DNA of 33,037 bases from the NCBI GenBank assembly GCA_037382465.1, contig JARRPX010000018.1, positions 1 through 33,037 of the forward strand. Direction: 5' to 3'. This DNA is from Anaerolineales bacterium (GTDB lineage Bacteria; Chloroflexota; Anaerolineae; Anaerolineales; E44-bin32). Under the pieces are notes generated by a model. The model was not told the origin of the DNA, searched no databases, and worked only from the letters and a program-made list of their open reading frames with translations. A program made the translations under genes and the position numbers. The first letter of the stretch is position 1. Each line of letters begins with the position of its first letter. This document shows, piece by piece, positions 319 to 17,019 of this stretch.

Positions 319-858
319 CTAGGCCGCCTGCTCCCACACAGGCTTGTGCGCATATCCCATGGAAAAAGCCTTCTTGTTCAGCATTAAAGTTGTCGGCGGT
401 ACGGTGGCGGCGATGGCCTTTTCGACCGCCTTTCGCTCGGTGAAATCCACCACCGCAGTGAAGAATCCCAACATGATCACGTTCATCACGATACGCCGGC
501 CCAATTCTTCGGCCATACGCGTCGCCGGAATCCCGACCGTCTGATCCCCCGTCTCCGGTGTGACGAAGTCACTCTCGATGATCACCAGGGCGTCCTCCCG
601 CGCTTCGGGACGGAAGCGCGCGTAGCTCTCCTGCGAGAGCGCCACCAGCACGTCCGCCTTCTGCACGAAGGGATAATCGATCGGCCGGTCGGCGACGACG
701 AGATTTGCGTTCGACGCCCCACCCCGCGCTTCGGGTCCGTAGGCCTGGGTCATGACGGCGTTCAAATCCTGGTAGAGCGAGAGCGCCCGGCCCAGGATCA
801 CACCGAACAATCCGACACCTTGCCCCCCGAAACCGGAAATGCGAATCTCTTCTCTCAA
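319..858 (-). CDS. korC: 2-oxoacid:ferredoxin oxidoreductase, gamma subunit
   Basis: Last gene of a four-gene operon for a CoA-dependent 2-oxoacid:ferredoxin oxidoreductase, a cytoplasmic enzyme that interconverts a 2-oxoacid plus CoA with acyl-CoA, CO2 and reduced ferredoxin. The gamma-family signature GFGGQG lies near the N-terminus, followed by a YGPEARGG motif and a late NVIMLG segment; about 180 residues is normal for the family. A GTG at 867 overlaps the beta-subunit stop (GTGA). A TTG at 858 is preceded by GGAG at good spacing and gives an N-terminus (x-REEIRISGFGG) that matches the other gamma subunit near the right end of the window, so I prefer 858. Substrate cannot be read from this subunit; 2-oxoglutarate is inferred from the neighbouring citrate-cleavage operon. 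Confidence 0.88.
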   Translation of the reverse strand: MREEIRISGFGGQGVGLFGVILGRALSLYQDLNAVMTQAYGPEARGGASNANLVVADRPIDYPFVQKADVLVALSQESYARFRPEAREDALVIIESDFVTPETGDQTVGIPATRMAEELGRRIVMNVIMLGFFTAVVDFTERKAVEKAIAATVPPTTLMLNKKAFSMGYAHKPVWEQAA

Positions 859-863
859 ATCGA

Positions 864-1691
864 TCACTCCTCGATCTGCACGGGTTGATAGGGCAGCAGG
901 TCACGATCCACGAATCGACCGACGTAGATCGGCTGGTTGCTGCTCAAATCGATCTCGACCTCATCCAGAGGCACGCTCTTATCGATCTTGCAGCGTTCCT
1001 TGTAAAGCAGCATCTCTTCCAGGCCATCCTCGATCTGGTTCGATTTCCCGTAACCGATGGGACACGGCGAGAGCACTTCGATGAACGAAAAACCGGGTTT
1101 ACGGAAGGCGTAGAGGATGTCCTTCTGAACCTGGTGGGCGTGCATGGTCGTCCAGCGCGAGACGAAATTCGCCCCGGCCGCGGCCAAAAGCATGGGAAAG
1201 TTAAACGGGTGTTCGGGGTTACCGTACGGCGCCGTCGTCGCCCGCGCCCCATACGGCGTCGTCGGTCCCGCCTGGCCGCCGGTCATGCCGTAATTGAAAT
1301 TATTTGCGCAGATCACCGTCAAGTCGACGTTGCGACGTGCAGCGTGGATCAGATGATTTCCACCGATGGCGGCCAGATCTCCGTCGCCGCTGAAAACCAC
1401 CACGTTCAGTTCGGGTTTGGCCAGTTTGATCCCCAGGGCAAACGGGATGGCCCGGCCGTGCGTGGTGTGGTAGGAATCGATTGCCATGTAGCCCGCCACG
1501 CGGCCGGAGCAGCCGATCCCCGAGACGACCACATGTCGATCGATGGGGATCTCGGAATCGAGGATCGCCTGTGCGTAGCAGCGCATGACGATACCGATCC
1601 CGCATCCCGGACAAAAGATGTGGGGGATGCGTTCCTCCCGCAGGATGACGTCCAGCGGGTGCCTATCGACGGCGATGATGACCGTTTCCAC
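864..1691 (-). CDS. korB: 2-oxoacid:ferredoxin oxidoreductase, beta (TPP) subunit
   Basis: Catalytic beta subunit that binds thiamine diphosphate and a [4Fe-4S] cluster. Visible motifs are CPGCG near residue 27, a GCSGR motif, the thiamine diphosphate signature GDGDLAAIGG ending in NN, and a SPCPIGYG motif. The four cysteines of these motifs (CxxC, GCS, SPC) are the usual cluster ligands. About 275 residues is normal. The start is a GTG preceded by GGAGG, inside the end of the alpha-subunit gene (overlap of roughly 29 bases), and the stop overlaps the gamma gene, so translation of the three is coupled. The 2-oxoglutarate-type assignment rests on context: VorB and KorB cannot be told apart by eye. 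Confidence 0.9.
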   Translation of the reverse strand: METVIIAVDRHPLDVILREERIPHIFCPGCGIGIVMRCYAQAILDSEIPIDRHVVVSGIGCSGRVAGYMAIDSYHTTHGRAIPFALGIKLAKPELNVVVFSGDGDLAAIGGNHLIHAARRNVDLTVICANNFNYGMTGGQAGPTTPYGARATTAPYGNPEHPFNFPMLLAAAGANFVSRWTTMHAHQVQKDILYAFRKPGFSFIEVLSPCPIGYGKSNQIEDGLEEMLLYKERCKIDKSVPLDEVEIDLSSNQPIYVGRFVDRDLLPYQPVQIEE

Positions 1692-2841
1692 GACCGCTAA
1701 CCTCCGTGATCACTCGAAAGATATCCTCGGGCGACATCATTTTCCCGCCGGCATGATTCACGCCGACGACTTTCTGCGTAACGTGGCGTTCCAAGTCTCG
1801 GGACACCTGCCCCAGATTGATTTCGGCCACGATAAATGCGTTCACCTGCCTGGCGATTTCCTTGATCCTGCGCTCGGGAAACGGCCACAACGAGACCAGC
1901 CGCAAGTAACCGACTCGCATTCCCACCTGCCGGGCCTCCCGTACCGCCCGCTTTGCGGACCGTGCCGTGCAGCCAAAGGAAACCACCACGATTTCCGCTT
2001 CATCGAGCCATTCTTCTTCAACGACGATGATCTCGCCGGCGTTACGCTCGATCTTGTCACTGAGACGCGTCACGAGCGCATGGTGCGCTTCGGCCGACAT
2101 GTCCGGATACCCGCGTGCGTCGTGCGTCAGGCCCGTGAAATGAATCCGGTATCCTTCTCCTGCGTGAGCCATGGGCGGCACCAGATCGTCGTCTTCGACT
2201 GCGTAAGGCTTGAAATCCTCGCCCGGCTTCTTTTTAGGCCGCTTGCGTCCCCAGCGTTCGATCTCGTTTTCGGGCGGGATGACCACCTTCTCGACCATGT
2301 GCCCGACGACCTCGTCGGCCAGAACGATCACCGGGGTGCGGTAGCGATCGGCCACGTTGAAAGCTCGCACGGTGAGATCGAACATCTCCTGCGGTGAACT
2401 GGGCGCGTAGGCCACGATCTGGTAATCCCCATGAGACCCCCATTTGGCCTGCATCACGTCGGCCTGGCCGGGAAGTGTGGGCAAGCCGGTCGAAGGCGCG
2501 GCGCGCATCACGTTGACCAGAACGCAGGGGATTTCGAGCATGATCGCCAGACCGAGATTCTCCATCATCAGGCTGAAACCGGGCCCGGAAGTCGCCGTCA
2601 TAGCGCGTGAGCCGGCGGCGGACGCGCCCAGCACGGAGGCGATGCTGCTGAGCTCGTCTTCCATTTGAATGAAAACGCCGCCCGTGTTGGGAAGACGGCG
2701 TGCCAGATACTCTGCGATCTCGGTCGACGGCGTGATGGGATAGCCACCGAAAAACGTGCAGCCAGCGGCGATCGCCCCTTCGGCGCAGGCGTGGTCGCCG
2801 TGCATGAAATGCTTACCGGAGCGTACGACGCTGTCGCTCAA
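1663..2841 (-). CDS. korA: 2-oxoacid:ferredoxin oxidoreductase, alpha subunit
   Basis: Alpha subunit carrying the pyrimidine-binding and domain II regions of the oxidoreductase. The N-terminal part contains the hallmark GGYPITPSTEI, followed by an MEDELSSIASVLGASAAGSR region and TSGPGFSLM, as in KorA/VorA. The frame is open well upstream, but homology begins only at HGDHACAEGAIAAG. I place the start at a TTG at 2841 that overlaps the ferredoxin stop (TTGA) and has GGGGGA just upstream. This gives 392 residues, the usual family size; a longer start would read through the ferredoxin gene in another frame. The gene order ferredoxin-alpha-beta-gamma is the four-subunit type. Confidence 0.88.
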   Translation of the reverse strand: MSDSVVRSGKHFMHGDHACAEGAIAAGCTFFGGYPITPSTEIAEYLARRLPNTGGVFIQMEDELSSIASVLGASAAGSRAMTATSGPGFSLMMENLGLAIMLEIPCVLVNVMRAAPSTGLPTLPGQADVMQAKWGSHGDYQIVAYAPSSPQEMFDLTVRAFNVADRYRTPVIVLADEVVGHMVEKVVIPPENEIERWGRKRPKKKPGEDFKPYAVEDDDLVPPMAHAGEGYRIHFTGLTHDARGYPDMSAEAHHALVTRLSDKIERNAGEIIVVEEEWLDEAEIVVVSFGCTARSAKRAVREARQVGMRVGYLRLVSLWPFPERRIKEIARQVNAFIVAEINLGQVSRDLERHVTQKVVGVNHAGGKMMSPEDIFRVITEVSGRGNGHHRRR

Positions 2842-3107
2842 TCGTCCCCCTTCACAGTGTATATGGCGAACTCGGGGCAAACCATGCCGCAGAAACCACA
2901 CAGCGTACAGGCGCTTTCCATTCCCGGCGCGATCTCCGGGATATGGTACCCTTTTTCGTTTGCCTGCTCGGAGTCTTGAAGTACATTTCGAGGACAAAGG
3001 CGGATACAAATCCGACAACCTTTGCAGCGTTCAGGTATCAGATAGATGATCCCTCGCGAGACGACTGCTTCATCCGTATCGAGAGGCGCTCGTGCAAAGT
3101 ATCTCAT
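2838..3107 (-). CDS. korD: 2-oxoacid oxidoreductase ferredoxin (delta) subunit
   Basis: Small dicluster ferredoxin that passes electrons between the oxidoreductase and free ferredoxin. Two complete [4Fe-4S] motifs are present: Cys28, 31, 34, 38 followed by Pro, and Cys67, 70, 73, 77 followed by Pro. The chosen ATG at 3107 has GAGGG four bases upstream and gives 89 residues; an ATG at 3146 would add 13 residues but has a poor ribosome site. It is the first gene of the operon and its stop overlaps the start of the alpha subunit. A TATAAT-like box lies about 110 bases upstream on the same strand. Confidence 0.88.
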   Translation of the reverse strand: MRYFARAPLDTDEAVVSRGIIYLIPERCKGCRICIRLCPRNVLQDSEQANEKGYHIPEIAPGMESACTLCGFCGMVCPEFAIYTVKGDD

Positions 3108-3181
3108 CGTGCCCTCGTGGTAATCGACAAACCGATGAAACCACATTCCCGGGCCGCAAGAAAACCTGCCGCCTTGCCACT

Positions 3182-3574: not shown

Positions 3575-5116
3575 ATGGCACGTTTACACGAACACCAGGG
3601 GAAATCCCTACTCGCGAATTGCGGCATCAGCGTCCCGCGAGGCGGTCCCGTAAAATCCGCAAAGGAAGCCCAGGCGCTGGCCGAGGAAATCAACGGTCCC
3701 GTCGTCGTCAAAGCGCAGGCATGGGTCACCGGCCGCGCCGGCATCGGCGCCATTCGCTTCGTCGATTCAGCGCAAGCCGCCGCGGAAGCGGCCGCCGAGA
3801 TCCTGGGCATGCAGATCAGGGGCTTCACCGTCGATACGGTGCTGATCGAAGAGAAGCTCGACGTCGCCCGGGAATTCTACGCCGGCGTGATCATCGACGA
3901 CCAGTCGCAGGCGCCGATGATGATCTTCAGCAGCTCCGGGGGAAGCGGGATCGAAGAAATCGCCCGGGAGCATCCCGAGACGATTTCGCGGCGGATTGTG
4001 GACATCCGCACCGGCCTGCTCGAACACCAGGCCCGCGACCTGGTCCGCAAGGTCGATATTCACGAGAAACTGCAGCTCAAGCTCGGGGGGATGCTGGCCA
4101 AGCTGTACGACGTCGCACGCAAATACGATGCCCGCGCTGCGGAAATCAACCCCATTGTGCTCACAAACGAGGGCGAGTTGATAGCCGCAGACTGCCGCAT
4201 CACGGTCGACGACTCCGCCGTTTACCGCCACCCGGAACTGGGCATCGAAATCGCCCGCGAGTTCGACCGGCCGCCCACGGCGTTGGAACGAATCGCCTGG
4301 CAGGTCGAAAAGAACGATTACCGCGGAACGTTCTACTTCATCCAGCTCGAGCGTGATTTCCAATCCGGGAACGGCGTGATCGGTTTCCACGGCGCCGGCG
4401 GCGGCGGTTCGATGATGAGCATGGACGCGGTTTTGAACCGCGGTTACAAACTGGCCAACTTCGTGGACACGAGCGGCAATCCACCGGCATCGAAGGTTTA
4501 TCGAGCCGCACGGATCATCCTCTCGCAGCCCGGAATCGACGGCTACTTTGCTTCCGGATCCGGTGTCGCCTCGCAGGAGCAGTTCCACAGCGCACGCGGC
4601 CTGGTGAAAGCCTTCATGGAGGTTCCCCTCGAAGTTCCTGCCGTCATCCGGCTGGGCGGGAACGCCGAAGAAAGGGCCATCGCCATTCTGGAACGCGCCG
4701 AGGATTACATCCCTGCGCCCATCGAGGGCTACGGGAAAGACGACACGCCGGAATTCTGTGCCCAGAGGCTGGACGCATTGATCCAGGAATCCGAACCCGC
4801 AGATACAATATCCTCAGGGTATGAACCTCCCGAAGCGAAGGAACCCTACCAATTCGAGACCGTCACGGGGGGCACCGTCACCTTCGACCACGCTGCCTGC
4901 CGTGATTGCGAGAGCAAAATCTGCATCGAGACCTGCGTTCCCAGAATCCTCAAACTGGAAGACGGCGTCCCCGTGCTCAACATTTCGCTCGAGGAAGCCA
5001 GGAAAGGTGGATGCAGCGAGTGCCTGGCTTGCGAGGTCGAATGTTTCTTCGAAGGCAACCGCGGCGGTTACGTTTCTTTGCCCATTCCCGGGCTGGACGA
5101 GCTTTCCGCAACGTGA
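3575..5116 (+). CDS. SucC-like acyl-CoA synthetase beta subunit fused to a dicluster ferredoxin
   Basis: Residues 1 to about 240 are an ATP-grasp domain of the succinyl-CoA synthetase beta family: it begins LHEHQGKSLLA, has a VVVKAQ stretch, and has an AEINPIV motif with the following DDSAVYRHPE. Residues about 240-420 match the CoA-ligase domain. The family is normally near 390 residues; this protein has 513. The extra C-terminus is a two-cluster ferredoxin: Cys442, 445, 450, 454 and Cys480, 483, 486, 490, ending in a Gly-rich FEGNRGGY tail reminiscent of FixX-type ferredoxins. The ATG at 3575 follows AAAAGGAAAAG. Likely role: large subunit of a citryl-CoA synthetase-like enzyme (ATP + citrate + CoA), inferred from the SucD-like and citryl-CoA-lyase-like genes behind it. 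Plain succinate-CoA ligase is the alternative. Confidence 0.85.
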   Translation: MARLHEHQGKSLLANCGISVPRGGPVKSAKEAQALAEEINGPVVVKAQAWVTGRAGIGAIRFVDSAQAAAEAAAEILGMQIRGFTVDTVLIEEKLDVAREFYAGVIIDDQSQAPMMIFSSSGGSGIEEIAREHPETISRRIVDIRTGLLEHQARDLVRKVDIHEKLQLKLGGMLAKLYDVARKYDARAAEINPIVLTNEGELIAADCRITVDDSAVYRHPELGIEIAREFDRPPTALERIAWQVEKNDYRGTFYFIQLERDFQSGNGVIGFHGAGGGGSMMSMDAVLNRGYKLANFVDTSGNPPASKVYRAARIILSQPGIDGYFASGSGVASQEQFHSARGLVKAFMEVPLEVPAVIRLGGNAEERAIAILERAEDYIPAPIEGYGKDDTPEFCAQRLDALIQESEPADTISSGYEPPEAKEPYQFETVTGGTVTFDHAACRDCESKICIETCVPRILKLEDGVPVLNISLEEARKGGCSECLACEVECFFEGNRGGYVSLPIPGLDELSAT

Positions 5117-5147: not shown

Positions 5148-6059
5148 ATGGCCATATTGATCGACGAAACCAAACGCGTGCTGGTGCAAGGCATTACGGG
5201 CCGCGAAGGCAAAACCCGGGCGCGTTTGATGAAGGAATACGGCACCCAGGTCGTTGCCGGCGTAACGCCCGGCAAGGGCGGCCAGGACGTCGAAGGCGTC
5301 CCTGTTTTCGATACCGTCCAGGAAGCCTGGGAGAACGTTGGACCGATCGACGTAAGTGTGCTCTTCATCCCGGCGCCGCTGGTGAAAGACGCCGCACTGG
5401 AAGCGATCGACGCCGGCGTGAAACTGCTCGTCATCGTCCCCGATCGCGTGCCGATCTACGACGTGCTCGAGATCGCCGAAGCCGCGCACCGCAAAGAATC
5501 ACACTTTGTCGGGCCGAACACGCTCGGCGTTCTTTCACCGGGCAAGGCCTTGCTGGGCATGATCGGCGGCCGGGCGGCGTCGGCCAAGGCCTGGTTCATG
5601 CCGGGTCCCGTGGGGATCTGCTCCCGCTCCGGCGGGATCACCTCCTCGATGGCCTACTACCTGGCGCAGGAAGGGATCGGTGCGACGACTCTGGTCCACG
5701 TGGGCGGCGACGTCGTCGTCGGAACACCGCTGCCGGAAGTCGCCCTGCACTTCGAGAACGATCCGCAAACGAAGGCCATCGTGATGTTCGGCGAGATCGG
5801 CGGCACCCAGGAAGAGCGTCTGGCCGACCTGATCGAAGCCGGCGAGGTCACAAAGCCGGTCGTCGCCTTCATCGGCGGGAAAGCGGCGAAGAGCGGCACA
5901 CGTTTCAGCCATGCCGGCGCGATCATCGAAGGCGGGCGCGGTACGCACGAAGGCAAGGTAAATCGTCTGCGCGAAGTCGGCGTGCACGTCGTCGATGGCT
6001 TCGGGATGCTGCCGCAAGAGACGAAATCCGTCCTTATCAAACATGGGATTATGAAATGA
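5148..6059 (+). CDS. SucD-like acyl-CoA synthetase alpha subunit (citryl-CoA synthetase-like)
   Basis: Partner of the preceding beta subunit. It has 303 residues, near the family norm. The N-terminal Rossmann CoA-binding domain carries VLVQGITGREG. The phosphohistidine motif is intact as SHAGAI with His255. Two signature stretches differ from housekeeping SucD: the ITEGIP loop reads IVPDRVP and the CPG-I-T-PGE loop reads GPNTLGVLSPGK, which points to a substrate other than succinate. In Hydrogenobacter, SucC/SucD-like proteins form citryl-CoA synthetase, and that is the favoured reading here. The ATG at 5148 has GGAG upstream; its stop overlaps the next start (ATGA). Confidence 0.83.
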   Translation: MAILIDETKRVLVQGITGREGKTRARLMKEYGTQVVAGVTPGKGGQDVEGVPVFDTVQEAWENVGPIDVSVLFIPAPLVKDAALEAIDAGVKLLVIVPDRVPIYDVLEIAEAAHRKESHFVGPNTLGVLSPGKALLGMIGGRAASAKAWFMPGPVGICSRSGGITSSMAYYLAQEGIGATTLVHVGGDVVVGTPLPEVALHFENDPQTKAIVMFGEIGGTQEERLADLIEAGEVTKPVVAFIGGKAAKSGTRFSHAGAIIEGGRGTHEGKVNRLREVGVHVVDGFGMLPQETKSVLIKHGIMK

Positions 6060-6832
6060 GTGAAGATACCTGGAAAACTGCCATTACCCGGATCGAACCC
6101 AACGAAGTGCGCTTGCGCGGCTACCGCATCGATGAATTGATGGGAAATGTAACCTTTGCGCAGGCAATTTTCCTGGCCTTGACCGGCGAATTACCTGCGC
6201 CGAACGTTGCAAAACTGCTCGATGCCATGCTGGTATCGTCCATCGATCACGGCGCCACGCCGCCTTCGGCGCTCGCTGCTCGCACTGCGGCATCGACCGG
6301 CGCTCCACTCAACGCAGCCGTTGCGGCGGGGGTGCTTTCGATCAACCGTTTTCACGGCGCAGCAATCTACGACTGTATGGGCGTCCTCGAAGAGGGGATC
6401 CAACTGGCTGAAGACTCGAACGTGAGTATCGAAGATGCCGCCGGTGAATTGGTCGCCCGCTATCGCCAGGAGAAGAAACGTATCGCCGGCCTGGGTCACC
6501 GCATCCACAGCGACGACCCCAGGACGAAGAAACTGTTCGCCCTGGCGCAGGAACTGAAGGTCGCTGGAGACGGCGTGACCATGATTACTGCCATCCATGG
6601 TGCGTTGTCGAAAGGCGGCAAAGATCTGCCCATCAACGTTGACGGCGCCATTGCAGCCCTGCTCGTCGATCTGCACATGCCGCGCGAATTGGCCAACGCC
6701 TTCTTTATCATGGCGCGCGTTCCGGGTTTGGTGGCACACGTGTACGAAGAACAAACACGCGAGCGTCCGATGCGCAAGATCGATCCAGTAAAGCATGAAT
6801 ACGACGGCCCCCCTGCCAGAAGCCTCGATTGA
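6056..6832 (+). CDS. Citrate-synthase-fold lyase, citryl-CoA lyase type
   Basis: Short member (258 residues) of the citrate synthase superfamily, lacking the N-terminal part of full synthases (about 370-430). The equivalents of the active-site residues are all present: DHG with His65, RFHGAA with His100, GLGHRIHSDDPRT with His148, and NVD with Asp196. Stand-alone proteins of this size include citryl-CoA lyase, which cleaves citryl-CoA to acetyl-CoA and oxaloacetate after the synthetase step. The start overlaps the SucD-like stop by four bases, so the synthetase and lyase are translationally coupled, which supports a two-step ATP-citrate cleavage. It could instead act on a methylated or longer citryl-CoA, or work as a small synthase. 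Confidence 0.82.
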   Translation: MSEDTWKTAITRIEPNEVRLRGYRIDELMGNVTFAQAIFLALTGELPAPNVAKLLDAMLVSSIDHGATPPSALAARTAASTGAPLNAAVAAGVLSINRFHGAAIYDCMGVLEEGIQLAEDSNVSIEDAAGELVARYRQEKKRIAGLGHRIHSDDPRTKKLFALAQELKVAGDGVTMITAIHGALSKGGKDLPINVDGAIAALLVDLHMPRELANAFFIMARVPGLVAHVYEEQTRERPMRKIDPVKHEYDGPPARSLD

Positions 6833-6938: not shown

Positions 6939-7478
6939 ATGTCCAACGAATTGATCGAACTCATTCCCGAATTTTCAGAAATCGAAGATGAAGAGCTTCG
7001 AAGAAAGGCGCTCGCCGTCTGGGAAGAGGCGCTGGAAATCGGCGGGTGGAGCATCGACGATCTCAAACACATGCCCTACACGCTGTTGGTGGAGGACGTA
7101 GAGATCAGCTTCCCCGAACACGTGAGCACCGTCTGCCGCCTGTGTATCGCCATGCAAGAAGTGCTCGAAGATGCGCATGGCGCGCGATACGACATCGATC
7201 GTGACACGCTCATCGCCGGCGCGCTGCTGGCCGACGTCGGCAAGCTGCTCGAATTCCGCGAAGAGAACGGCGAATACAAATGGGCGAGCATGTATCAGTA
7301 CCTACGCCACCCTTTTACCGGCGTCGGCTTGTGTTTCAAACACGACATTCCCGAGGCAGTGATGCACGTCATCGCAACGCACTCCTGGGAAGGCGACAAA
7401 TTCGCCCGCCGGCCGGAATCGATTATCTTCCATCACGCGGATTTTACGGATTTCGACCTGACCAAATCCGTAAAATAG
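6939..7478 (+). CDS. HD-domain protein with altered HD dyad
   Basis: HD-superfamily protein of 179 residues. Metal-binding positions can be followed as His61 (PEH), the dyad at 98-99, His124 (RHPF), His148 (ATH) and Asp168 (HHAD). The dyad, normally LLHDVGK, reads LLADVGK, so the His is Ala while its Asp and the other ligands remain. Activity may be reduced, or the metal site may differ. It sits inside the citrate-cleavage operon, 106 bases after the lyase and just before the aconitase-type subunits; that gap is the largest in the operon. GAGGAAAAG precedes the ATG. Substrate and role are unknown; a regulatory nucleotide hydrolase or a metabolite-damage enzyme are both possible. Confidence 0.7.
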   Translation: MSNELIELIPEFSEIEDEELRRKALAVWEEALEIGGWSIDDLKHMPYTLLVEDVEISFPEHVSTVCRLCIAMQEVLEDAHGARYDIDRDTLIAGALLADVGKLLEFREENGEYKWASMYQYLRHPFTGVGLCFKHDIPEAVMHVIATHSWEGDKFARRPESIIFHHADFTDFDLTKSVK

Positions 7479-7532: not shown

Positions 7533-8789
7533 ATGCCGCAGACATTCGCCGAGAAGGTATTAGCCAGGAAAGCCGGTGCGAAACAACTATCCGCCGGCCA
7601 GATCGTGGAGATCACGCCGGACGTGGCGCTTTCCCACGATAACACAGCGCCCATCTACGGGATTTTCAAGAAGATGGGTGCGGAGCGGGTCTTCGATCCC
7701 GAGATGCACGCCATCTTCCTCGATCACGCCGCGCCCGCACCTACGACGGCCCACGCAGAAAACCACCGCATCATCCGCGAATTCGTTCGTGAACAGGGCA
7801 TCCCGCACTTCTACGAAGTGGGGCGCGGGATTTGCCATCAGGTGCTGGTCGAAGAGGGATTGGCGCTTCCGGGTGAGATCGTGCTGGGATCGGATTCGCA
7901 CACACCGCACGCCGGTTCGATGGGCGCCTTCGGCGCCGGCATCGGCCGCAGCGAGATGGCTTCGATCTGGGCCATCGGATCACTGTGGCTGCGTGTTCCG
8001 GAAAGCATCAAGATCGTCGTACACGGCCGTCTCGTGGAAGGCGTTTCCGCCAAGGATCTGGCGCTGCACGTCATCGGCGAGAACGGCGCCGACGCGGCGC
8101 TCTATCAATCGGTCGAATGGCACGGCGAGGCGATCGCCGCCCTCGACATTTCCCAGCGCGAGGTACTGCCCAACATGATGGCCGAAATGGGCGCCAAGAA
8201 CAGCTACGTTCCCGCAGACGAGAAGACTTTCGCTTATCTCGAAGGCCGGGCGAAACGCACCTACGAGCCCGTCTTTCCGGACGATGATGCCGGCTACGCA
8301 AGAATTCTCGAGTACGATGCGGCGCAGATTCAACCCATGATCGCCTGTCCGCATACCGTGGATAACGTCCGGCCGCTGTCTGAACTGCGTGGCACGCACG
8401 TCGACCAGGCCTTTCTGGGTACTTGCACCAACGCCAGGTTGGACGATCTCGCCATTGCAGCAGCGATTCTCGAAGGAAAACACATCGCCAAGGGTGTGCG
8501 CATGATCGTCATTCCCGCCTCCTCCGAGGTGTACCTGGAAGCGCTTAAAGCGGGTTATTTGGAAACTTTCGTGCGCGCCGGCGCGGTCATCGAAAGCCCC
8601 GGATGCGGACCCTGTATGGGGAATCACATGGGCGTGCCTGCCATCGGCGAGGTGACGATCAGCAGCGCGAACCGCAATTTCCGCGGGCGTATGGGCACGA
8701 AAGAGAGCGAAATTTACCTCGCCAGTCCCGCCGTCGTCGCCGCTTCGGCGGTCGCGGGAGAAATTTCTCATCCGAAGGACGTATCCTGA
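7533..8789 (+). CDS. Aconitase/3-isopropylmalate dehydratase family, large subunit
   Basis: Large [4Fe-4S] subunit of the split LeuCD/homoaconitase type, 418 residues. Cluster ligands are visible as Cys298 (GTCTNA) and Cys358/Cys361 (GCGPCMG). [16 protein letters not shown] and [12 protein letters not shown] are further family motifs. The ATG at 7533 follows GTAGGAGAGAAC. The family isomerises 2- to 3-hydroxy tricarboxylates (or malate derivatives) by dehydration and rehydration. No 2-isopropylmalate, citramalate or homocitrate synthase is nearby, while a citryl-CoA-lyase-type gene and a dehydrogenase flank it. A citrate/isocitrate (aconitase) or homologous role is therefore more likely than leucine synthesis. 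Its stop overlaps the start of the small subunit. Confidence 0.85.
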
Positions 8790-9319
8790 TGGCCAAAAAC
8801 AAAATCATTCGAGGTCGAGTTTGGAAATACGGTGACGACGTCAATACCGACGTCATCTTCCCGGGCAAATACACGTATACGGTCAGCGATCCGAAAGAAA
8901 TGCCGCAGTATGCCCTCGAAGATCTCGACCCGCGTTTTGTGAAAGAAATATGTCCCAACGACATCATCGTCGCAGGGACGAACTGGGGCTGCGGATCTTC
9001 ACGCGAACAAGCCGTCACCTGCCTGAAGGAGAGCAGACTGGGAGCGATCGTGGCGAAGAGCATCGCCCGGATTTACTACCGCAACTGCATCAACGCAGCG
9101 CTTCCGGCTCTGATTTGCCCCGAAGCGGTCGACGCCATCGAAGACGGAGAAACCATCGAGATCGATCTCGAGAGTGGTTCGATCCGCTGCGCTGGCGGGG
9201 AATTCAGTTTCCCGCCGCTCCCGGAAGCGGTGATGAAGATCTTCGACGCCGGCGGCCTGGTGCCCTATACCCGGCAGCGGTTGGAGCAGATGAAATCCCC
9301 ACCCCCGACCAACGAGTAA
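8789..9319 (+). CDS. Aconitase/3-isopropylmalate dehydratase family, small subunit
   Basis: Swivelling small subunit (176 residues) that completes the active site of the preceding protein. It carries DVNTDVIFPGKYTYT near the start, and GTNWGCGSSREQA followed by AIVAKSIARIYYRNCINAAL. The loop after DTDVI, which contacts the substrate side chain in LeuD and homoaconitase (YLxx-type in characterised enzymes), here reads KYTYT, so specificity cannot be assigned by rule. The ATG shares its A with the TGA of the large subunit. The C-terminal tail is longer than in minimal LeuD proteins. Confidence 0.85.
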   Translation: MAKNKIIRGRVWKYGDDVNTDVIFPGKYTYTVSDPKEMPQYALEDLDPRFVKEICPNDIIVAGTNWGCGSSREQAVTCLKESRLGAIVAKSIARIYYRNCINAALPALICPEAVDAIEDGETIEIDLESGSIRCAGGEFSFPPLPEAVMKIFDAGGLVPYTRQRLEQMKSPPPTNE

Positions 9320-9374: not shown

Positions 9375-10493
9375 ATGGCGAAATATCAAATTGCTTGGAT
9401 GCCCGGAGACGGCATCGGCGTCGATGTGATGGACGCCGCCCGTATCGTACTCGATGCGCTCGGCCTCGACGCCGAATACATTCCCGCCGACATCGGCTGG
9501 AAATTCTGGTGTACGGAAGGAGAAGCACTTCCCGAACGGACGGTCAAGATCTTAAATGATTGCACCTGTGGATTGTTCGGCGCGATCACGTCCAAGCCCA
9601 AGGATGAGGCGGCCAAAGAACTCGCCCCCGAACTGCAGGATAAAGGATTTTCCTACCGCAGCCCGATCGTGCGTCTGCGGCAGATTTTCGACCTGTACAC
9701 CAATCTACGACCGTGCAAGGCGTTTCCGGGGAATCCCCTGAATTACCGCGACGACATCGATCTGGTCGTCTTTCGGGAGAACACGGAAGGACTATACAGT
9801 GGCGTCGAATTCTACCCCTTGCCGGACGAAGTACGCACCGCGATGGCGGAATTCAGCCCGGCGATGTCGCGTTTCGACGGCGTTCCTGGCGCCGAAATCG
9901 CCATCAGCCTGCGCGTGATCACCAAAAACGGCGCCACCCGTATCGTGCGCCAGGCCTTCGAATTTGCCCGGAAATTCGGCTACCCCACCGTCACCCTGGT
10001 CGAGAAGCCGAACGTACTGCGCGAAACCAGCGGGTTAATGACCCGTCAGGCGAGAGAAATCGCTGCCGAATACCCGGACATCAAACTCTGGGAGACCAAC
10101 ATCGACGCGCAGATGATGTGGTTGGTAAAGAACCCGACGGATTACGGCGTCCTGGTGACGTCGAACATGTTCGGGGACATCGTGTCCGATCTGGCGGCGC
10201 AGTTGGTCGGCGGGCTGGGCTTCGCTTCAAGTGGAAACATCGGCGACGATTTCGCGGTCTTCGAACCCACGCATGGATCGGCCCCGAAATACGCCGGCCA
10301 GTACAAGGTCAACCCCACGGCGATGCTGCTTGCGGTGAAATTGATGTTGGATTGGCTTGGTGAGAACGACCTGGCTGAAAGCCTGGAGCAATCCATCCGT
10401 AAAGTGATCGCAGCCGGAGAAATCCGCACCTACGACCTGGGCGGATCCAGTTCGACGCTCGACGTTGCAAACGCCGTCGTGGCGCAGCTGTAA
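9375..10493 (+). CDS. Isocitrate/isopropylmalate-type dehydrogenase
   Basis: NAD(P)-dependent beta-decarboxylating dehydrogenase of 372 residues. MPGDGIG lies at 9-15, the substrate arginines in RLRQIFDLYTNLRP, the RENTEGLYSG motif after that, the NMFGDIVSDLAA metal site, and HGSAPKYAG near the C-terminus. HGSAPKYAG followed by NP resembles NAD-isocitrate and homoisocitrate dehydrogenases rather than isopropylmalate dehydrogenase, where HGSAPDIAG is common. In the proposed pathway it interconverts isocitrate and 2-oxoglutarate plus CO2. AGGAGA lies eight bases before the ATG. Isopropylmalate, homoisocitrate or alkyl-isocitrate remain possible substrates. Confidence 0.83.
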   Translation: MAKYQIAWMPGDGIGVDVMDAARIVLDALGLDAEYIPADIGWKFWCTEGEALPERTVKILNDCTCGLFGAITSKPKDEAAKELAPELQDKGFSYRSPIVRLRQIFDLYTNLRPCKAFPGNPLNYRDDIDLVVFRENTEGLYSGVEFYPLPDEVRTAMAEFSPAMSRFDGVPGAEIAISLRVITKNGATRIVRQAFEFARKFGYPTVTLVEKPNVLRETSGLMTRQAREIAAEYPDIKLWETNIDAQMMWLVKNPTDYGVLVTSNMFGDIVSDLAAQLVGGLGFASSGNIGDDFAVFEPTHGSAPKYAGQYKVNPTAMLLAVKLMLDWLGENDLAESLEQSIRKVIAAGEIRTYDLGGSSSTLDVANAVVAQL

Positions 10494-10516: not shown

Positions 10517-11893
10517 ATGGATTCAATAAGCCGTGAAATGGCAGTATTCGCCCGAAATCTTACTTATGCGGACGTTCCCGCAGCGGCGAAGCACGAAGCC
10601 AAACGTTTCTTGCTGGACAGCGTAGGCTGTGCCCTTGCGGCTACACGAAATGAAGACATGCGGGCGATGCTGCGCTTCACGGAGAAACTCGGCGGCACGC
10701 CCGAAGCCACAGTGATCGGCAGCGGACTGCGCACCAACGTCCCCAACGCTGCCTTGATGAATTGTCTGCTTACCCGGGCGATGGATTACAACGACATCTA
10801 CTGGGAGCAGGATCCCAGCCACCCCTCCGACCTCATCGGCGCCGCTCTGTCCGCCGCGGAGGCAAACGGAAAAAATGGGGCAGAGACGCTGACGGCCATC
10901 GTCCTGGCCTACGAATTGGAAATGCGCTGGTGTCATGCCGCCCATCCCGGCGTTCGTGAAGTCGGCTGGCACCACGCCACACTGACCCAGTTCGTCAGTC
11001 CGCTGGTGGCGGGTAAATTGTACGACCTCGATCTCGACCAACTCGTCGCCGCGGTCGGCATCAGCGGCAGTTCGCATTTCACCCTCGGCGGCGTCGTCGC
11101 CGGCCATCTGACGAACATGAAGAACACCGCCGATCCTCTGGCCGCGCAGGCCGGCGTCATCGCTGCACTCATGGCGCGCGAAGGCTACGAAGGGCCGGTG
11201 GAAGTGATCGAAGGCAAAGAGGGTTTGATCGAGGTCATTTCCAACGTCGAATGGAAGACGGACGAGCTGCTCAAAGGACTCGGTGAGGAATTTATCATCA
11301 CCCGCTGCGGCTACAAAGCCTATCCCAGCGAAGCCCTCACCCATCAGCCAATTTCTGCAGCGCTGCAGGCGCGCAGCACACTTGGTGTCACCCACGACGA
11401 GGTGGCGGAAATCCTCGTCGAGACAACGACGCGCGGCGCCGACATCTTGTCCGATCCGAGTAAATACAAGCCCGAAACCAAAGAGACCGCAGATCACAGC
11501 CTGCCCTACGTGATCGCCGCCGCGATCGTGGACGGCAACGTGCTGCCCAATTCATTCAGCGACGAGAAATTGAAAGATCCCGCAATCCTGGCGACGCTGC
11601 CGAAAATCAAGGTCGTTGCCGATCCGGAAATCGACGCGCTCTTCCCCGGCGTGAAACGTGCTCGCGTGACCATCACCTGTAAAGATGGGCGCAGCCATAC
11701 CGCCCAGACAGACGTCGCAAAAGGTGCTCCAGAGAACCCACTCAGCGATGAGGAAATCGCCGCAAAATTCCAGGCCAACGCACAAGGCATCGTCAACGAT
11801 GATCGTTTGGATGAAATCGTCGAAGCGACCTGGAACGTCGATCGCGCAACGGACATCGCAGCCTATATGACGCTACTCATCTCCGATGTGTGA
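10517..11893 (+). CDS. MmgE/PrpD family protein
   Basis: 458 residues of the MmgE/PrpD fold. Typical parts are LDSVGCALAATRNEDM near the N-terminus, TRAMDYNDIYW, the HPSDLIGAALSAAE helix, and KAYPSEALTHQPI in the lid domain. Known members are 2-methylcitrate dehydratase, cis-aconitate decarboxylase and iminodisuccinate epimerase, all acting on small tri- or dicarboxylates. It is the last gene of the operon, with AAGGAGAC before the ATG and a clear terminator behind the stop. Next to aconitase-type and citryl-CoA-lyase-type genes it probably handles citrate, aconitate or a 2-alkylcitrate. It is the main hint that the operon's substrate may not be ordinary citrate. Confidence 0.82.
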   Translation: MDSISREMAVFARNLTYADVPAAAKHEAKRFLLDSVGCALAATRNEDMRAMLRFTEKLGGTPEATVIGSGLRTNVPNAALMNCLLTRAMDYNDIYWEQDPSHPSDLIGAALSAAEANGKNGAETLTAIVLAYELEMRWCHAAHPGVREVGWHHATLTQFVSPLVAGKLYDLDLDQLVAAVGISGSSHFTLGGVVAGHLTNMKNTADPLAAQAGVIAALMAREGYEGPVEVIEGKEGLIEVISNVEWKTDELLKGLGEEFIITRCGYKAYPSEALTHQPISAALQARSTLGVTHDEVAEILVETTTRGADILSDPSKYKPETKETADHSLPYVIAAAIVDGNVLPNSFSDEKLKDPAILATLPKIKVVADPEIDALFPGVKRARVTITCKDGRSHTAQTDVAKGAPENPLSDEEIAAKFQANAQGIVNDDRLDEIVEATWNVDRATDIAAYMTLLISDV

Positions 11894-13368: not shown

Positions 13369-14415
13369 CTATCGAAAGTCAGCCATGATTTCTTCGAGCG
13401 CCTCTTTAGAGGGCCGTAACGCATCCTGCTGAAGCCGGGCGAGCGGTTTGTCGACGAGATTTTCCACCGATTGGAACGTCTCCTGGTTCTGGTTGAGGTA
13501 AATCAAACCCGTAGCCAGGATTTCGGCACAGCAGGTTTCCTCGAGAAGCTGCATTGCGGCAAGCCTGTCCGAAGTGTCGTGATTGTGCTCCAGCTTCTTG
13601 AGCACCAAACGGGACTTGTTGTGCAATTCGACTTCCACGATTTCCCCGGGTTCGATTTCCATCTCGATTTCATCGTAGGAAGGAACCCAGGTGACGTCGT
13701 GCAGGGGATATTCGTGTTCGATTCCCCACGAATAACTCTTCGTGGATTCATCGCGATTGTTGAAAGTCACACAGGGGCTGATGATGTCGAGCACCGCTGT
13801 CCCTTGGAAGTTGAGCGCGGATTTCAACAGTTCCTTAACCTGCTTGGGATCTCCCGCAAAGGATCGCGCCACGAAACCGCAGTTGGCGATGAGCGCTTCC
13901 ATGCACAAATCGATCGGCATGAAAGGATTTACGCCCATCTTCTTCAACTTCTGCCCCTGATCGGCGGTCGCGGAAAATTGACCTTTGGTCAGCCCATAAA
14001 CGCCGTTGTTTTCGATGATGTAAACCATGGGCACGTTGCGGCGCATCAAGTGGATAAATTGGCCAATGCCGATGCTGGCAGTGTCTCCATCCCCGGAGAC
14101 TCCGATCGTCTTCAGCGACCGGTTTGCGATGGACGCGCCGGTCGCGATAGACGGCATGCGTCCATGCACGGCGTTGAAACCATGCGAACGGCCCATGAAA
14201 TATGTCGGACTCTTGCTCGAGCAGCCGATCCCGGAAATCTTGATCACATTCTCGGGCTGTATCGAGAGTTCGTAACAGGCTGCCATGATCTGGCTCGAGA
14301 TGGAATTATGCCCACAACCCTGGCATAAAGTAGTCGGCCGACCCTTGTAATCCGATCTCGAAAGGCCGATCTCGTTTACTTTTTTCTTAGCTCTTCCGTT
14401 GCCATTATCTTTCAT
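13369..14415 (-). CDS. korB: 2-oxoacid:ferredoxin oxidoreductase, beta subunit (two-subunit type)
   Basis: 348 residues from the ATG at 14415, longer than the beta subunit of the four-subunit enzyme, as expected for the two-subunit type. Motifs: TLCQGCGHNS, GIGCSSKSP, GDGDTASIG ending in ENNGVYGL (thiamine diphosphate), and ISPCVTFNN, giving the four cluster cysteines. The start lies inside the end of the alpha gene (11-base overlap) and is preceded by GAGGAAC. With its partner it forms a second, distinct ferredoxin-dependent oxidoreductase. In bacteria this arrangement is commonly annotated as 2-oxoglutarate:ferredoxin oxidoreductase KorAB, but pyruvate or other oxoacids are not excluded. 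Confidence 0.9.
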   Translation of the reverse strand: MKDNGNGRAKKKVNEIGLSRSDYKGRPTTLCQGCGHNSISSQIMAACYELSIQPENVIKISGIGCSSKSPTYFMGRSHGFNAVHGRMPSIATGASIANRSLKTIGVSGDGDTASIGIGQFIHLMRRNVPMVYIIENNGVYGLTKGQFSATADQGQKLKKMGVNPFMPIDLCMEALIANCGFVARSFAGDPKQVKELLKSALNFQGTAVLDIISPCVTFNNRDESTKSYSWGIEHEYPLHDVTWVPSYDEIEMEIEPGEIVEVELHNKSRLVLKKLEHNHDTSDRLAAMQLLEETCCAEILATGLIYLNQNQETFQSVENLVDKPLARLQQDALRPSKEALEEIMADFR

Positions 14416-16255
14416 GTCGTTGTTCCTCTGCGCTTCGAACTGCCTCGAAAGTCCAATCCGCATCGAGCGGCACGCCGTTGTTCTTGGTCAGGGAAACCAG
14501 CTTCGTCGCCAGTGCAGGCCACTCGAGTTGCAGCAGTTGATGCATCTGGCCATCCGTGTTCATTTCAACAACGTACACGACCTCGTGTTCCTGTATAAAA
14601 TCTTCCACGGTTTCGGAGAAGGGAATCGCGCGGATGCGTAAATAATCCGTCGCCAGGCCTTCATCCGATAGGTATTCGCGTGCTTCGAGGATGGCCGGAT
14701 CCGTCGATCCGAAAGCGATGATCCCCACATCGGCATGATCCATTCGCTGCACCACGGGAGCAGGCAGCGCATCACGGACGTTCTCCAACTTTCGCCAAAG
14801 CCGTTCGATGTTGGCGTCCCAATCTTGCGCCTTTTCGCTGTAAATCGCCCGCTCGTCGTGACCCGTACCTCGGGTGAAGAACGCCGCCAGGGGATGATCC
14901 GTTCCCGGAAGCGTGCGTGGCGCGATGCCATCGCCATCGATGTCACGATAACGGCCAAAATCTCCCAGCTTTTCCAGGTCTTCGGCGGACAACACCTTGC
15001 CGCGATCCATATCCACATCGGGATACTGGAATGGCTTCGAAACCCACTGATTCATGCCCAGATCCAGATCGCTGAGTACGAAGACTGGCGTCTGGAATCG
15101 TTCGGCCAGGTCGAAAGCACGCCAGCCGAACTCGAAGCACTCGTGCGGCGCAGCGGGGATGAGCAGCGTGTGACGAGTGTCGCCGTGACTGAGAAAACGC
15201 AGAATGAGCACGTCACCTTGCGAGGTGCGTGTGGGCAGGCCCGTGCTGGGACCCATACGCTGTACGTCCCAGATTACGATCGGAATTTCGGCGATGAAGG
15301 CCAGGCCGGCGAATTCGGACATGAGCGAAATTCCGGGCCCGGACGTCGAGGTCATGGCTCGGGCGCCGACCCATCCCGCACCGACGGCCATCCCGATTGC
15401 GGCGAGTTCATCCTCGGCCTGGACCACGGCGTATGTGGCTTTTCCCGTCTCGGGATCGCTTCGCAGATGAGGCAAGTAATACTCGAGCGTCTCCGCGAGA
15501 CTGGATGCCGGTGTGATCGGATACCAGGACGCAACGGTCACACCGCCGTAAATCGCGCCCAATGCGGCTGCCGTATTGCCATCGACCAGGAGGTGTTCTT
15601 CGTCTCTCGGCATCCGTTCGACGCGATAGGGATCGCGCTTGGGCAGGTTGTCACGCGCCCACGATGCCGCCAGGTCGATCATTTTCATGTTCAATGCGAC
15701 GGACGTCTCCCGACCGCCGAAATGGGTATCCAAAGCGCTGCGGATCTCTTCGTTGTCGATCTGCAGAATTTCAGTCAGCACACCTACATAGGCCATGTTG
15801 GCTACGTATTCACGCAACTGTTTCGGAGGGTCTGCTTCGTTTACGAGATCTCGAAGCGGTATGGGGTAGAAGATGACGTCCGGGCGATCCGCCGGTTCAG
15901 CCAAACGATCGTCATAGAAACAAACACCACCCTGCTTCAAATCTTGTAGATCATCGCGAAACGTCGCCATGTTCATGGCGACGAGCAGGTCGGCTTTCAG
16001 TTTGTTTGCCGTGTAGCCCTTTGCATTGACACGAATGGTGTACCACGTCGGCAAACCCTGGATGTTGGATGGGAAAAGATTCTTCCCACAAACCGGTATG
16101 CCCATACGGAAAAAAGCCCGTACGAGCGCCAGGTTCGATGTCTGGCTGCCCGATCCGTTCACCGTGGCAACGACCAGCGTGAAGTCGTTGACGATCGGCC
16201 GCTGCGCTTCCGCTTCACCTGCCGCTTCCTTCTGCTTTACTTGAGATTTACTCAT
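14405..16255 (-). CDS. korA: 2-oxoacid:ferredoxin oxidoreductase, alpha subunit with fused gamma domain
   Basis: 616 residues. Residues about 25-200 are the gamma domain (TVNGSGSQTSNLALVRAF, then SNIQGLPTWYTIRV), fused ahead of the alpha domain, which begins with DGNTAAALGAIYGG and SWYPITPASSLAE. It continues with AEDELAAIGMAVGAGW and TSTSGPGISLM, so the order is gamma-alpha. This is the standard domain order of two-subunit KorA. No separate ferredoxin subunit is present. GGAG lies nine bases before the ATG, within the end of the regulator gene, so the regulator, alpha and beta genes are translationally coupled. Confidence 0.9.
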   Translation of the reverse strand: MSKSQVKQKEAAGEAEAQRPIVNDFTLVVATVNGSGSQTSNLALVRAFFRMGIPVCGKNLFPSNIQGLPTWYTIRVNAKGYTANKLKADLLVAMNMATFRDDLQDLKQGGVCFYDDRLAEPADRPDVIFYPIPLRDLVNEADPPKQLREYVANMAYVGVLTEILQIDNEEIRSALDTHFGGRETSVALNMKMIDLAASWARDNLPKRDPYRVERMPRDEEHLLVDGNTAAALGAIYGGVTVASWYPITPASSLAETLEYYLPHLRSDPETGKATYAVVQAEDELAAIGMAVGAGWVGARAMTSTSGPGISLMSEFAGLAFIAEIPIVIWDVQRMGPSTGLPTRTSQGDVLILRFLSHGDTRHTLLIPAAPHECFEFGWRAFDLAERFQTPVFVLSDLDLGMNQWVSKPFQYPDVDMDRGKVLSAEDLEKLGDFGRYRDIDGDGIAPRTLPGTDHPLAAFFTRGTGHDERAIYSEKAQDWDANIERLWRKLENVRDALPAPVVQRMDHADVGIIAFGSTDPAILEAREYLSDEGLATDYLRIRAIPFSETVEDFIQEHEVVYVVEMNTDGQMHQLLQLEWPALATKLVSLTKNNGVPLDADWTFEAVRSAEEQRHER

Positions 16256-16991
16256 AAGGAGTCACTCCCATCGTTCCGACGAACGAATCGATTTCCGCCC
16301 CACTCTCGATTGCCGGTTGATAGTTGTCCATTTCCAAAGATTGCTGCAGTAGACCGATGTGCTGCACAAGTGCCTGGTACCCACTTTCGTAATCACCCGT
16401 TATGATCGCATCTACCATCTTCTCGTGATATTCCCATACACGATGCAAGTAATCGTAATCGCTGTATCGTTGATAACCAATCCGCTCGTAAAAAAACCAA
16501 TAAGCCTCTAAAACAGCCTGTAAAATGGGATTGTCGAGCCGCGAGTAAACCGTGAGATGGAGCTGGCGGTGCTCGCTGTGGGGAATCTGTATCGGCGTAC
16601 TTTTCAGGCGCTGCCATGCCCGGTCGACCAACTCCTGCAGCCGCTCTTTGTCTTCATCATGCAGCAATCGCACGGCTTCGTGCCAAAAGCCTGCTTCCAG
16701 ATGGTTGCGCAGCATACCCAGCGAATCGAACAGCCCATTATCGGCTTCCATACCAAATTGCAGCCCGGTGATCAAAGTCGGCAGCAAAGAAAAAGCCTGC
16801 GTTCGTGTTCCGGTTTTTGGCCGTACCTCGACGAAACCCAGGATGCGCGCGACCTCGAGTTGTTCACGAAGTTTGCTTCTACTGATCCCAAGCTTAGCAG
16901 CGATTTTCTTGATTGGTGGAAGCCTCTGGCCGGGCGGCGCGTTCAAGCCTGCGAGGTACGTAAGAAACTCGGATTGCATCGTATCATCCAT
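16248..16991 (-). CDS. GntR family (FCD/FadR-type) transcriptional regulator
   Basis: The N-terminal winged helix (PPIKKIAAKLGISRSKLREQ, then GFVEVRPKTGT) is followed by an all-helical FCD ligand domain. His residues at HRQLH, WEYHEK and LVQHI fit the metal or ligand site of the family. I choose the ATG at 16991, which has AAGG seven bases upstream, over the one at 17018, which has none. This gives 247 residues. It is the first gene of the operon with the two-subunit oxidoreductase, overlapping korA by eight bases, so it probably senses a carboxylate or oxoacid related to that enzyme and controls its own operon. An imperfect palindrome lies about 30 bases upstream. Confidence 0.82.
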   Translation of the reverse strand: MDDTMQSEFLTYLAGLNAPPGQRLPPIKKIAAKLGISRSKLREQLEVARILGFVEVRPKTGTRTQAFSLLPTLITGLQFGMEADNGLFDSLGMLRNHLEAGFWHEAVRLLHDEDKERLQELVDRAWQRLKSTPIQIPHSEHRQLHLTVYSRLDNPILQAVLEAYWFFYERIGYQRYSDYDYLHRVWEYHEKMVDAIITGDYESGYQALVQHIGLLQQSLEMDNYQPAIESGAEIDSFVGTMGVTPYE

Positions 16992-17019
16992 GATATACCT
17001 TGATCGCTGCATAATCATC

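What the first reader, a model, noticed from the sequence alone, without database searches (positions are those of the whole stretch)
4850..5116. Dicluster ferredoxin fused to the C-terminus of an ATP-grasp acyl-CoA synthetase subunit
The SucC-like protein ends with eight cysteines in two CxxC...C sets (442, 445, 450, 454 and 480, 483, 486, 490) plus a FixX-like Gly-rich tail. Succinyl-CoA synthetases and characterised citryl-CoA synthetases are not redox proteins. The fusion could dock the synthetase to the divergently encoded ferredoxin oxidoreductase, make citrate cleavage respond to ferredoxin redox state, or hint at an electron-linked reaction. I do not know a described system with this architecture.
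Basis: partly seen in the sequence, partly recalled or inferred. Interest (0 to 1): 0.85.

Follow-up and report, generated by a model that had tools for sequence, protein, structure and literature searches.

The report
Citrate-CoA synthetase with built-in ferredoxin
A citrate-processing enzyme subunit in these bacteria carries a permanently attached ferredoxin-like iron-sulfur domain, unchanged in its eight cysteines across about ten bacterial phyla, which suggests that an ATP-dependent step of central carbon metabolism is tied to an iron-sulfur cluster in a way that I found no description of.

Summary
Window 3575-5116 encodes a 513-aa SucC-like ATP-grasp subunit whose last ~92 residues carry Cys442/445/450/454 and 480/483/486/490. 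It is no artefact: a scan of species genomes gave 361 relatives, and the best 80 all encode the fusion, in about ten phyla, with all eight cysteines invariant (81/81). AlphaFold2 models the domain confidently (pLDDT 94), with a fold consistent with dicluster ferredoxins. The gene travels with SucD (75/80) and citryl-CoA lyase (67/80), often with LeuCD-type aconitase, isocitrate dehydrogenase and an HD protein. The synthetase shares the GGGGS...GNPPAxKxY signature of Hydrogenobacter citryl-CoA synthetase, and the catalytic residues I checked are intact. Best reading: a citryl-CoA synthetase/lyase module with an iron-sulfur domain built in, probably a redox-responsive or assembly element rather than a chemical electron-transfer step. 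The Kor docking idea is weak: KorA lies beside only 4/80 loci, and related loci in one genome carry the ferredoxin as a separate gene between sucC and sucD in other pathways. The FixX claim is not supported by sequence. I found no paper describing this architecture; the library searched is open-access only. Function is inferred; nothing has been assayed.

The parts
3575..5116 (+). SucC-like (citryl-CoA synthetase large-subunit-like) ATP-grasp / CoA-ligase protein with C-terminal dicluster ferredoxin domain, 513 aa
   Evidence: AlphaFold2 model pLDDT 91.9; Foldseek best matches are SCS, CCS and ACL beta subunits
4838..5116 (+). C-terminal ferredoxin-like domain, eight invariant Cys (442, 445, 450, 454 / 480, 483, 486, 490)
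   Evidence: 81/81 invariance; Fer4_9 in 64/67 relatives; domain-only AlphaFold2 model pLDDT 94.3; VIA-align Z 5-7.6 to dicluster ferredoxins
5148..6059 (+). SucD-like small subunit (CoA-binding / Succ_CoA_lig), phospho-His motif SHAGAII
   Evidence: His invariant in 67/67 relatives
6056..6832 (+). Citryl-CoA lyase (PRK06224 subfamily, 261.6 bits over the 212-bit cut-off), citrate-synthase-like His/His/Asp present
   Evidence: catalytic-residue invariance; in 67/80 loci
6939..7478 (+). HD-domain protein of unknown role, conserved in the operon
   Evidence: TIGR00277 E 2.2e-5, below its cut-off; present in 39/80 loci
7533..8789 (+). LeuC/aconitase-type large subunit
8789..9319 (+). LeuD/aconitase-type small subunit
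9375..10493 (+). Isocitrate/isopropylmalate-type dehydrogenase
   Evidence: in 27/80 loci
10517..11893 (+). MmgE/PrpD family protein
   Evidence: in 11/80 loci
319..3146 (-). Divergent korDABC-like 2-oxoacid:ferredoxin oxidoreductase (KorD 2838-3146, KorA 1663-2838, KorB 864-1691, KorC 319-867)
   Evidence: KorA NF006412 562.9 bits over the 411 cut-off; KorD Fer4

Best explanation
Window 3575-5116 is the large subunit of a citryl-CoA-synthetase-type enzyme. With the SucD-like small subunit it would make citryl-CoA from citrate, ATP and CoA through a phospho-histidine. The neighbouring citryl-CoA lyase would then split it to acetyl-CoA and oxaloacetate, or the pair would run in reverse. Its C-terminus is a dicluster ferredoxin-like domain that has become a fixed part of this synthetase branch. 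Shown here: the fusion, its conservation, the operon, the intact catalytic residues and a predicted ferredoxin-like fold. Inferred: citrate as substrate, two bound [4Fe-4S] clusters, and their job. I think the clusters act as a built-in iron-sulfur switch or assembly element, setting synthetase activity or its complex according to cluster state or the cell's redox state, and are not part of the chemistry.
For: All best 80 relatives are fusions, from about ten phyla, with eight invariant Cys plus invariant Cys395. SucD in 75/80 and citryl-CoA lyase in 67/80 loci. The GGGGS...ANFxDxxGNPPAxKxY signature is shared with H. thermophilus citryl-CoA synthetase 6hxq_B and absent from the SCS chains aligned in the same search; PF16114 Citrate_bind matches 268-390, E 3e-7. 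ATP/Mg, phospho-His and lyase His/His/Asp residues are essentially invariant. The protein is below NCBI cut-offs for succinate-CoA and malate-CoA ligase, and the genome has an ordinary SucC elsewhere. Confident ferredoxin-like model. Stand-alone homologues between sucC and sucD, and a tree placing those SucCs outside the fused clade, indicate that the ferredoxin belongs to the synthetase itself.
Against: No biochemical data exist: cluster binding, substrate and redox effect are all unmeasured. By whole-protein phmmer the subunit scores higher against T. aquaticus SCS (226 bits) than against citryl-CoA synthetase (125 bits). Thirty-five of 44 fusion genomes have a citrate synthase domain hit beyond the lyase, so the direction is open. 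A purely structural cluster would leave the same sequence record.
Confidence: 0.55

Rival explanations
1. The Fe-S domain is purely structural: the clusters staple the C-terminus and support subunit assembly, with no redox sensing. The ferredoxin-like domain of archaeal RNA polymerase subunit D is a structural analogue.
For: Citryl-CoA synthesis needs no electrons. VIA-align lists archaeal RNAP subunit D (7ok0_D, 2pa8_D, 2y0s_D, Z about 5.3-5.6) among the matches of the domain. In the two stand-alone relatives the second motif has lost one Cys, so not all eight are needed everywhere.
Against: In fusions all eight Cys are invariant over about ten phyla, including the classic ferredoxin spacing. 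Purely structural sites are often lost or replaced (general knowledge, not tested here).
Confidence: 0.25
2. The domain docks the synthetase to 2-oxoglutarate:ferredoxin oxidoreductase (Kor) or taps its ferredoxin pool, forming a metabolon for the citrate to succinyl-CoA arm.
For: Kor is divergent from the operon in the window. The best PDB profile match of the domain is the KorD-like subunit OorD of H. pylori, 8ys5_D, E 0.0045. KorA-type genes are more common in fusion genomes, 26/45 against 7/35.
Against: KorA is next to the fusion in only 4/80 loci; 19/45 fusion genomes have no KorA over the cut-off (MAGs may be incomplete); two loci lie beside pyruvate-type dehydrogenase or lipoate genes instead; the comparison genomes were not matched by phylum.
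Confidence: 0.12
3. The enzyme activates another hydroxy-polycarboxylate (for example methylcitrate, citramalate or malate), not citrate.
For: The aconitase and dehydrogenase match homoaconitase and homoisocitrate families as well as TCA ones; MmgE/PrpD is linked in 11/80 loci; a related SucC sits with fumarase-type and CitE-type genes.
Against: The lyase passes the citryl-CoA lyase cut-off, and the synthetase carries the citryl-CoA synthetase signature and a Citrate_bind match.
Confidence: 0.15
4. The clusters take part in a real electron-coupled reaction of the synthetase.
For: A dicluster ferredoxin is normally an electron carrier; fold matches include electron-bifurcating enzymes.
Against: The catalytic residues of the normal phospho-His mechanism are intact, and no flavin, nucleotide or other redox site was found in the protein by Pfam.
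Confidence: 0.04
5. Assembly, frameshift or sequencing artefact.
For: None found.
Against: Same architecture and similar length in independent assemblies from many studies and phyla.
Confidence: 0.005

Closest known systems
Citryl-CoA synthetase CcsA/CcsB plus citryl-CoA lyase of Hydrogenobacter thermophilus (6hxq)
   Same: Two-subunit SucC/SucD-type synthetase with a separate citryl-CoA lyase; shared GGGGS...GNPPAxKxY ligase signature
   Different: The solved large-subunit chain is 429 aa against 513 aa here, and matches P0001 only over residues 33-335, outside the ferredoxin domain
Succinyl-CoA synthetase SucCD
   Same: Overall fold (3ufx, 35% identity, TM to target about 0.9), ATP-grasp and phospho-His
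   Different: Below the NCBI SucC cut-off (258 against 370 bits); GGGGS/GNPPA in place of the SCS motif; extra ferredoxin domain
ATP-citrate lyase
   Same: Citrate-binding CoA-ligase domain (PF16114 match; Foldseek 5tes and others)
   Different: Here synthetase and lyase are separate proteins, and the sequence is only 18-20% identical to human ACL chains
Malate-CoA ligase (malate thiokinase) beta subunit
   Same: SucC-type ATP-grasp subunit; the stand-alone-ferredoxin relative L019 sits with CitE-type lyase and fumarase-type genes
   Different: 178.7 bits against a cut-off of 604
Dicluster 2[4Fe-4S] ferredoxins, including KorD/OorD and the PFOR ferredoxin subunit
   Same: Eight-Cys dicluster pattern and similar predicted fold
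   Different: Fused to a non-redox ligase; first motif CxxCxxxxCxxxC; own conserved tail with G...LP

Membership tests
Citryl-CoA synthetase (CCS) | Heterodimer of an ATP-grasp/CoA-ligase large subunit and a SucD-like small subunit with phospho-His | tested here: met
   Pfam ATP-grasp_2, CoA_binding and Ligase_CoA; SHAGAII in 67/67. Subunit genes only; assembly not tested
Citryl-CoA synthetase (CCS) | Ligase-domain signature of CcsA (GGGGS, GNPPAxKxY) | tested here: met
   Alignment to 6hxq_B; invariant or nearly so in 81 sequences
Citryl-CoA synthetase (CCS) | Linked or co-encoded citryl-CoA lyase | tested here: met
   NF004869 over cut-off; in 67/80 loci
Citryl-CoA synthetase (CCS) | Closest relative by overall sequence is a CCS | tested here: inconclusive
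   phmmer ranks SCS chains above 6hxq_B; no CCS row in the tree
Citryl-CoA synthetase (CCS) | ATP- and CoA-dependent citryl-CoA formation | not testable with these tools
   Needs an enzyme assay
Succinyl-CoA synthetase beta (NF001913) | Score above the equivalog cut-off | tested here: not met
   258.3 bits against 370
Malate-CoA ligase beta (NF010647) | Score above the equivalog cut-off | tested here: not met
   178.7 bits against 604
Dicluster ferredoxin (Fer4) | Eight cluster-ligating Cys in two ferredoxin motifs | tested here: met
   81/81 invariant
Dicluster ferredoxin (Fer4) | Match to a Fer4 profile | tested here: inconclusive
   Window copy: no family at E<=0.1; 64/67 relatives match Fer4_9, best E 4.9e-7
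Dicluster ferredoxin (Fer4) | Ferredoxin fold | tested here: inconclusive
   VIA-align Z 5-7.6 to dicluster ferredoxins and ferredoxin subunits, mostly rmsd 2.0-2.8 over 55-71 residues, below the Z 8 that the tool treats as clear; Foldseek E >= 0.35
Dicluster ferredoxin (Fer4) | Bound [4Fe-4S] clusters | not testable with these tools
   Needs UV-visible, EPR or Moessbauer spectra
FixX / ETF-QO ferredoxin | Match to the FixX/ETF-QO family profile | tested here: not met
   Absent from all 17 families matched by 67 members; Foldseek 7koe_D E 0.37

The most novel reading that the evidence does not exclude
Citrate cleavage (or ATP-yielding citrate formation) by citryl-CoA synthetase and lyase is gated by the redox state of a dicluster ferredoxin domain built into the synthetase, so that the ferredoxin pool sets the direction or rate of the citrate arm of the TCA cycle in a module spread over about ten phyla.
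Probability: 0.3. Interest if true: 0.82.

Novelty: new variant of a known kind. Interest (0 to 1): 0.64.

Why it matters
Citrate cleavage or synthesis is the step that decides whether the TCA cycle runs forwards or backwards. A synthetase with an invariant iron-sulfur domain, found in many uncultured phyla, would be a new way to couple that step to cellular redox or iron state. It also flags a widespread CCS/CCL-type module that marker sets built on the Aquificota enzymes may miss.

Tried and rejected
Assembly or frameshift artefact: rejected by conservation in independent genomes. FixX relationship: not found. Kor dependence as the general explanation: weak. The trio as a general replacement for citrate synthase: not supported, since 35 of 44 fusion genomes have a citrate synthase domain hit beyond the lyase; nine show none. 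Stand-alone ferredoxins beyond one genome: not found in 300 same-order genomes other than G011 or in a 400-genome phylum sample; weak hits G232, G749 and G1165 were not examined. Two Azospirillum plasmid SucC hits have no ferredoxin gene between the ligase subunits. Plasmid search: no record covers 80% of the query. Foldseek with the domain gave no significant hit. Literature searches on the fusion, citryl-CoA synthetase with ferredoxin, and Caldithrix gave no description; subscription journals are mostly not covered. I had no atomic coordinates, so the distance from clusters to active site was not measured.

Full report
What is there. It starts a run of genes with a SucD-like subunit (5148-6059), a citryl-CoA lyase (6056-6832), an HD-domain protein, LeuC- and LeuD-type aconitase subunits, an isocitrate/isopropylmalate-type dehydrogenase and an MmgE/PrpD protein. 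A korDABC-like oxidoreductase lies divergently upstream. The same genome has an ordinary SucC (contig C2) and a full-length citrate synthase (contig C52), so this synthetase is an extra one.

Not a one-off. Among 60 related genomes, nine carry the full-length fusion at 67-76% identity and two more carry pieces of it. A scan of species genomes returned 361 relatives; the best 80 all match the query through the ferredoxin part, in Chloroflexota, Deinococcota (Trueperaceae), Gemmatimonadota, Fidelibacterota/Marinimicrobia, KSB1, Zixiibacteriota, Calditrichota, Cloacimonadota, Acidobacteriota and Myxococcota, among others. The other 281 were not shown, so the claim 'all are fusions' holds for the best 80 only. 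Distribution is patchy: 2 of 301 sampled genomes of the phylum, 15 of 199 in the phylum of an acidobacterial relative, 4 of 40 in Calditrichota, and 2 of 284 in the phylum of the 'Deltaproteobacteria' relative, one of those a weak hit. All eight cysteines are invariant in 81 of 81, as is Cys395 in front of the linker.

The ferredoxin domain. AlphaFold2 models the whole protein at pLDDT 91.9 and the domain alone at 94.3. Foldseek with the domain has no significant match (best E 0.35). A structural second look gives Z 5-7.6 to dicluster ferredoxins and ferredoxin subunits, consistent with the fold but below the level that tool treats as clear. Single-sequence Pfam misses the window copy, but 64 of 67 relatives match Fer4_9. 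The best PDB profile match is the KorD-like OorD subunit, E 0.0045. Cluster binding is therefore strongly implied, not shown. The FixX resemblance is not supported.

The synthetase. Aligned to solved structures, the ligase domain shares GGGGS...ANFxDxxGNPPAxKxY with H. thermophilus citryl-CoA synthetase, where the SCS chains in the same search have a different motif. It scores below the NCBI cut-offs for succinate- and malate-CoA ligase, and residues aligned with the SCS Mg-ATP site (E190, N192, D206) are invariant. The SucD phospho-His is invariant in 67 of 67 and the lyase His/His/Asp in all 61-64 relatives aligned there. Against this, whole-length phmmer ranks SCS above citryl-CoA synthetase. 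I judge citrate the likely substrate, not a proven one.

The company it keeps. Across the 80 loci SucD is present in 75, citryl-CoA lyase in 67, the HD protein in 39, LeuC in 32, the dehydrogenase in 27, LeuD in 25, MmgE/PrpD in 11 and KorA in 4 (many loci are cut by contig ends, so these are lower bounds). Two loci lie next to 2-oxoacid dehydrogenase or lipoate genes. The KorA type is commoner in fusion genomes (26/45) than in a comparison set (7/35), but that set was not matched by phylum. Thirty-five of 44 fusion genomes have a citrate synthase domain hit beyond the lyase. So the direction of the pathway is open, and Kor is a frequent companion in the genome rather than a fixed neighbour.

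A separate ferredoxin gene. In one relative (RBG_16_48_8) two further loci have sucC, then a separate 96- or 120-aa homologue of the domain, then sucD: one beside fumarase-type and CitE-type lyase genes, the other beside HMG-CoA reductase and a beta-hydroxyacid dehydrogenase. A tree puts those two SucCs outside the fused clade and well apart from ordinary SucC, with a caution for the long L020 branch. The simplest reading is that the ferredoxin was first a subunit gene of this synthetase branch and was later fused; rooting is by midpoint only, so this is an inference. In both stand-alone copies the second motif has lost one cysteine, so the first cluster looks the more essential.

How it may work. 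The chemistry needs no electrons, so I favour a regulatory or assembly role for the clusters, with redox gating at about 0.3 and a purely structural role about 0.25. Docking to Kor is weaker and an electron-coupled reaction unlikely. None of this has been tested experimentally.

Novelty. Nine searches of an open-access library found no description of this architecture. Most subscription papers and sequence-database annotations were not searched, so 'undescribed' means not found there. I rate it a new variant of a known kind.

Noticed in passing
window 6939-7478: HD-domain protein of unknown role kept in the operon in 39 of 80 loci, with highly conserved His and Asp residues (H61, D99, H124, H143, H148, H166, D168).
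   Followed up: partly
L056, L063, L067, L071, L077, L089: Two LeuC/LeuD-type pairs in tandem in the same operon; among those tested, L067, L071, L077 and L089 come from genomes with no full-length citrate synthase hit.
   Followed up: no
L022 9617-11890 and L098 9786-10772: Unrelated genes (a 757-aa ORF; a DNA methylase) inserted between the fused sucC and sucD.
   Followed up: no
L022 1104-4526: Large 1140-aa HdrA-like protein (judged by reading the sequence) beside the kor genes of a close relative; the window starts at a contig end, so a counterpart cannot be seen.
   Followed up: no
window 13369-16255: A second 2-oxoacid:ferredoxin oxidoreductase (beta 13369-14463, fused gamma-alpha 14405-16255) with a GntR-like regulator gene at 16248-17018; the regulator and beta assignments are from reading the sequence only.
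   Followed up: no
L020 7801-11669: SucC, stand-alone ferredoxin and SucD next to degradative HMG-CoA reductase (TIGR00532 over cut-off) in Chloroflexi RBG_16_48_8.
   Followed up: partly
window protein residue 395 (about 4757-4759): A ninth cysteine just before the linker is invariant in 81 of 81 fusions.
   Followed up: no
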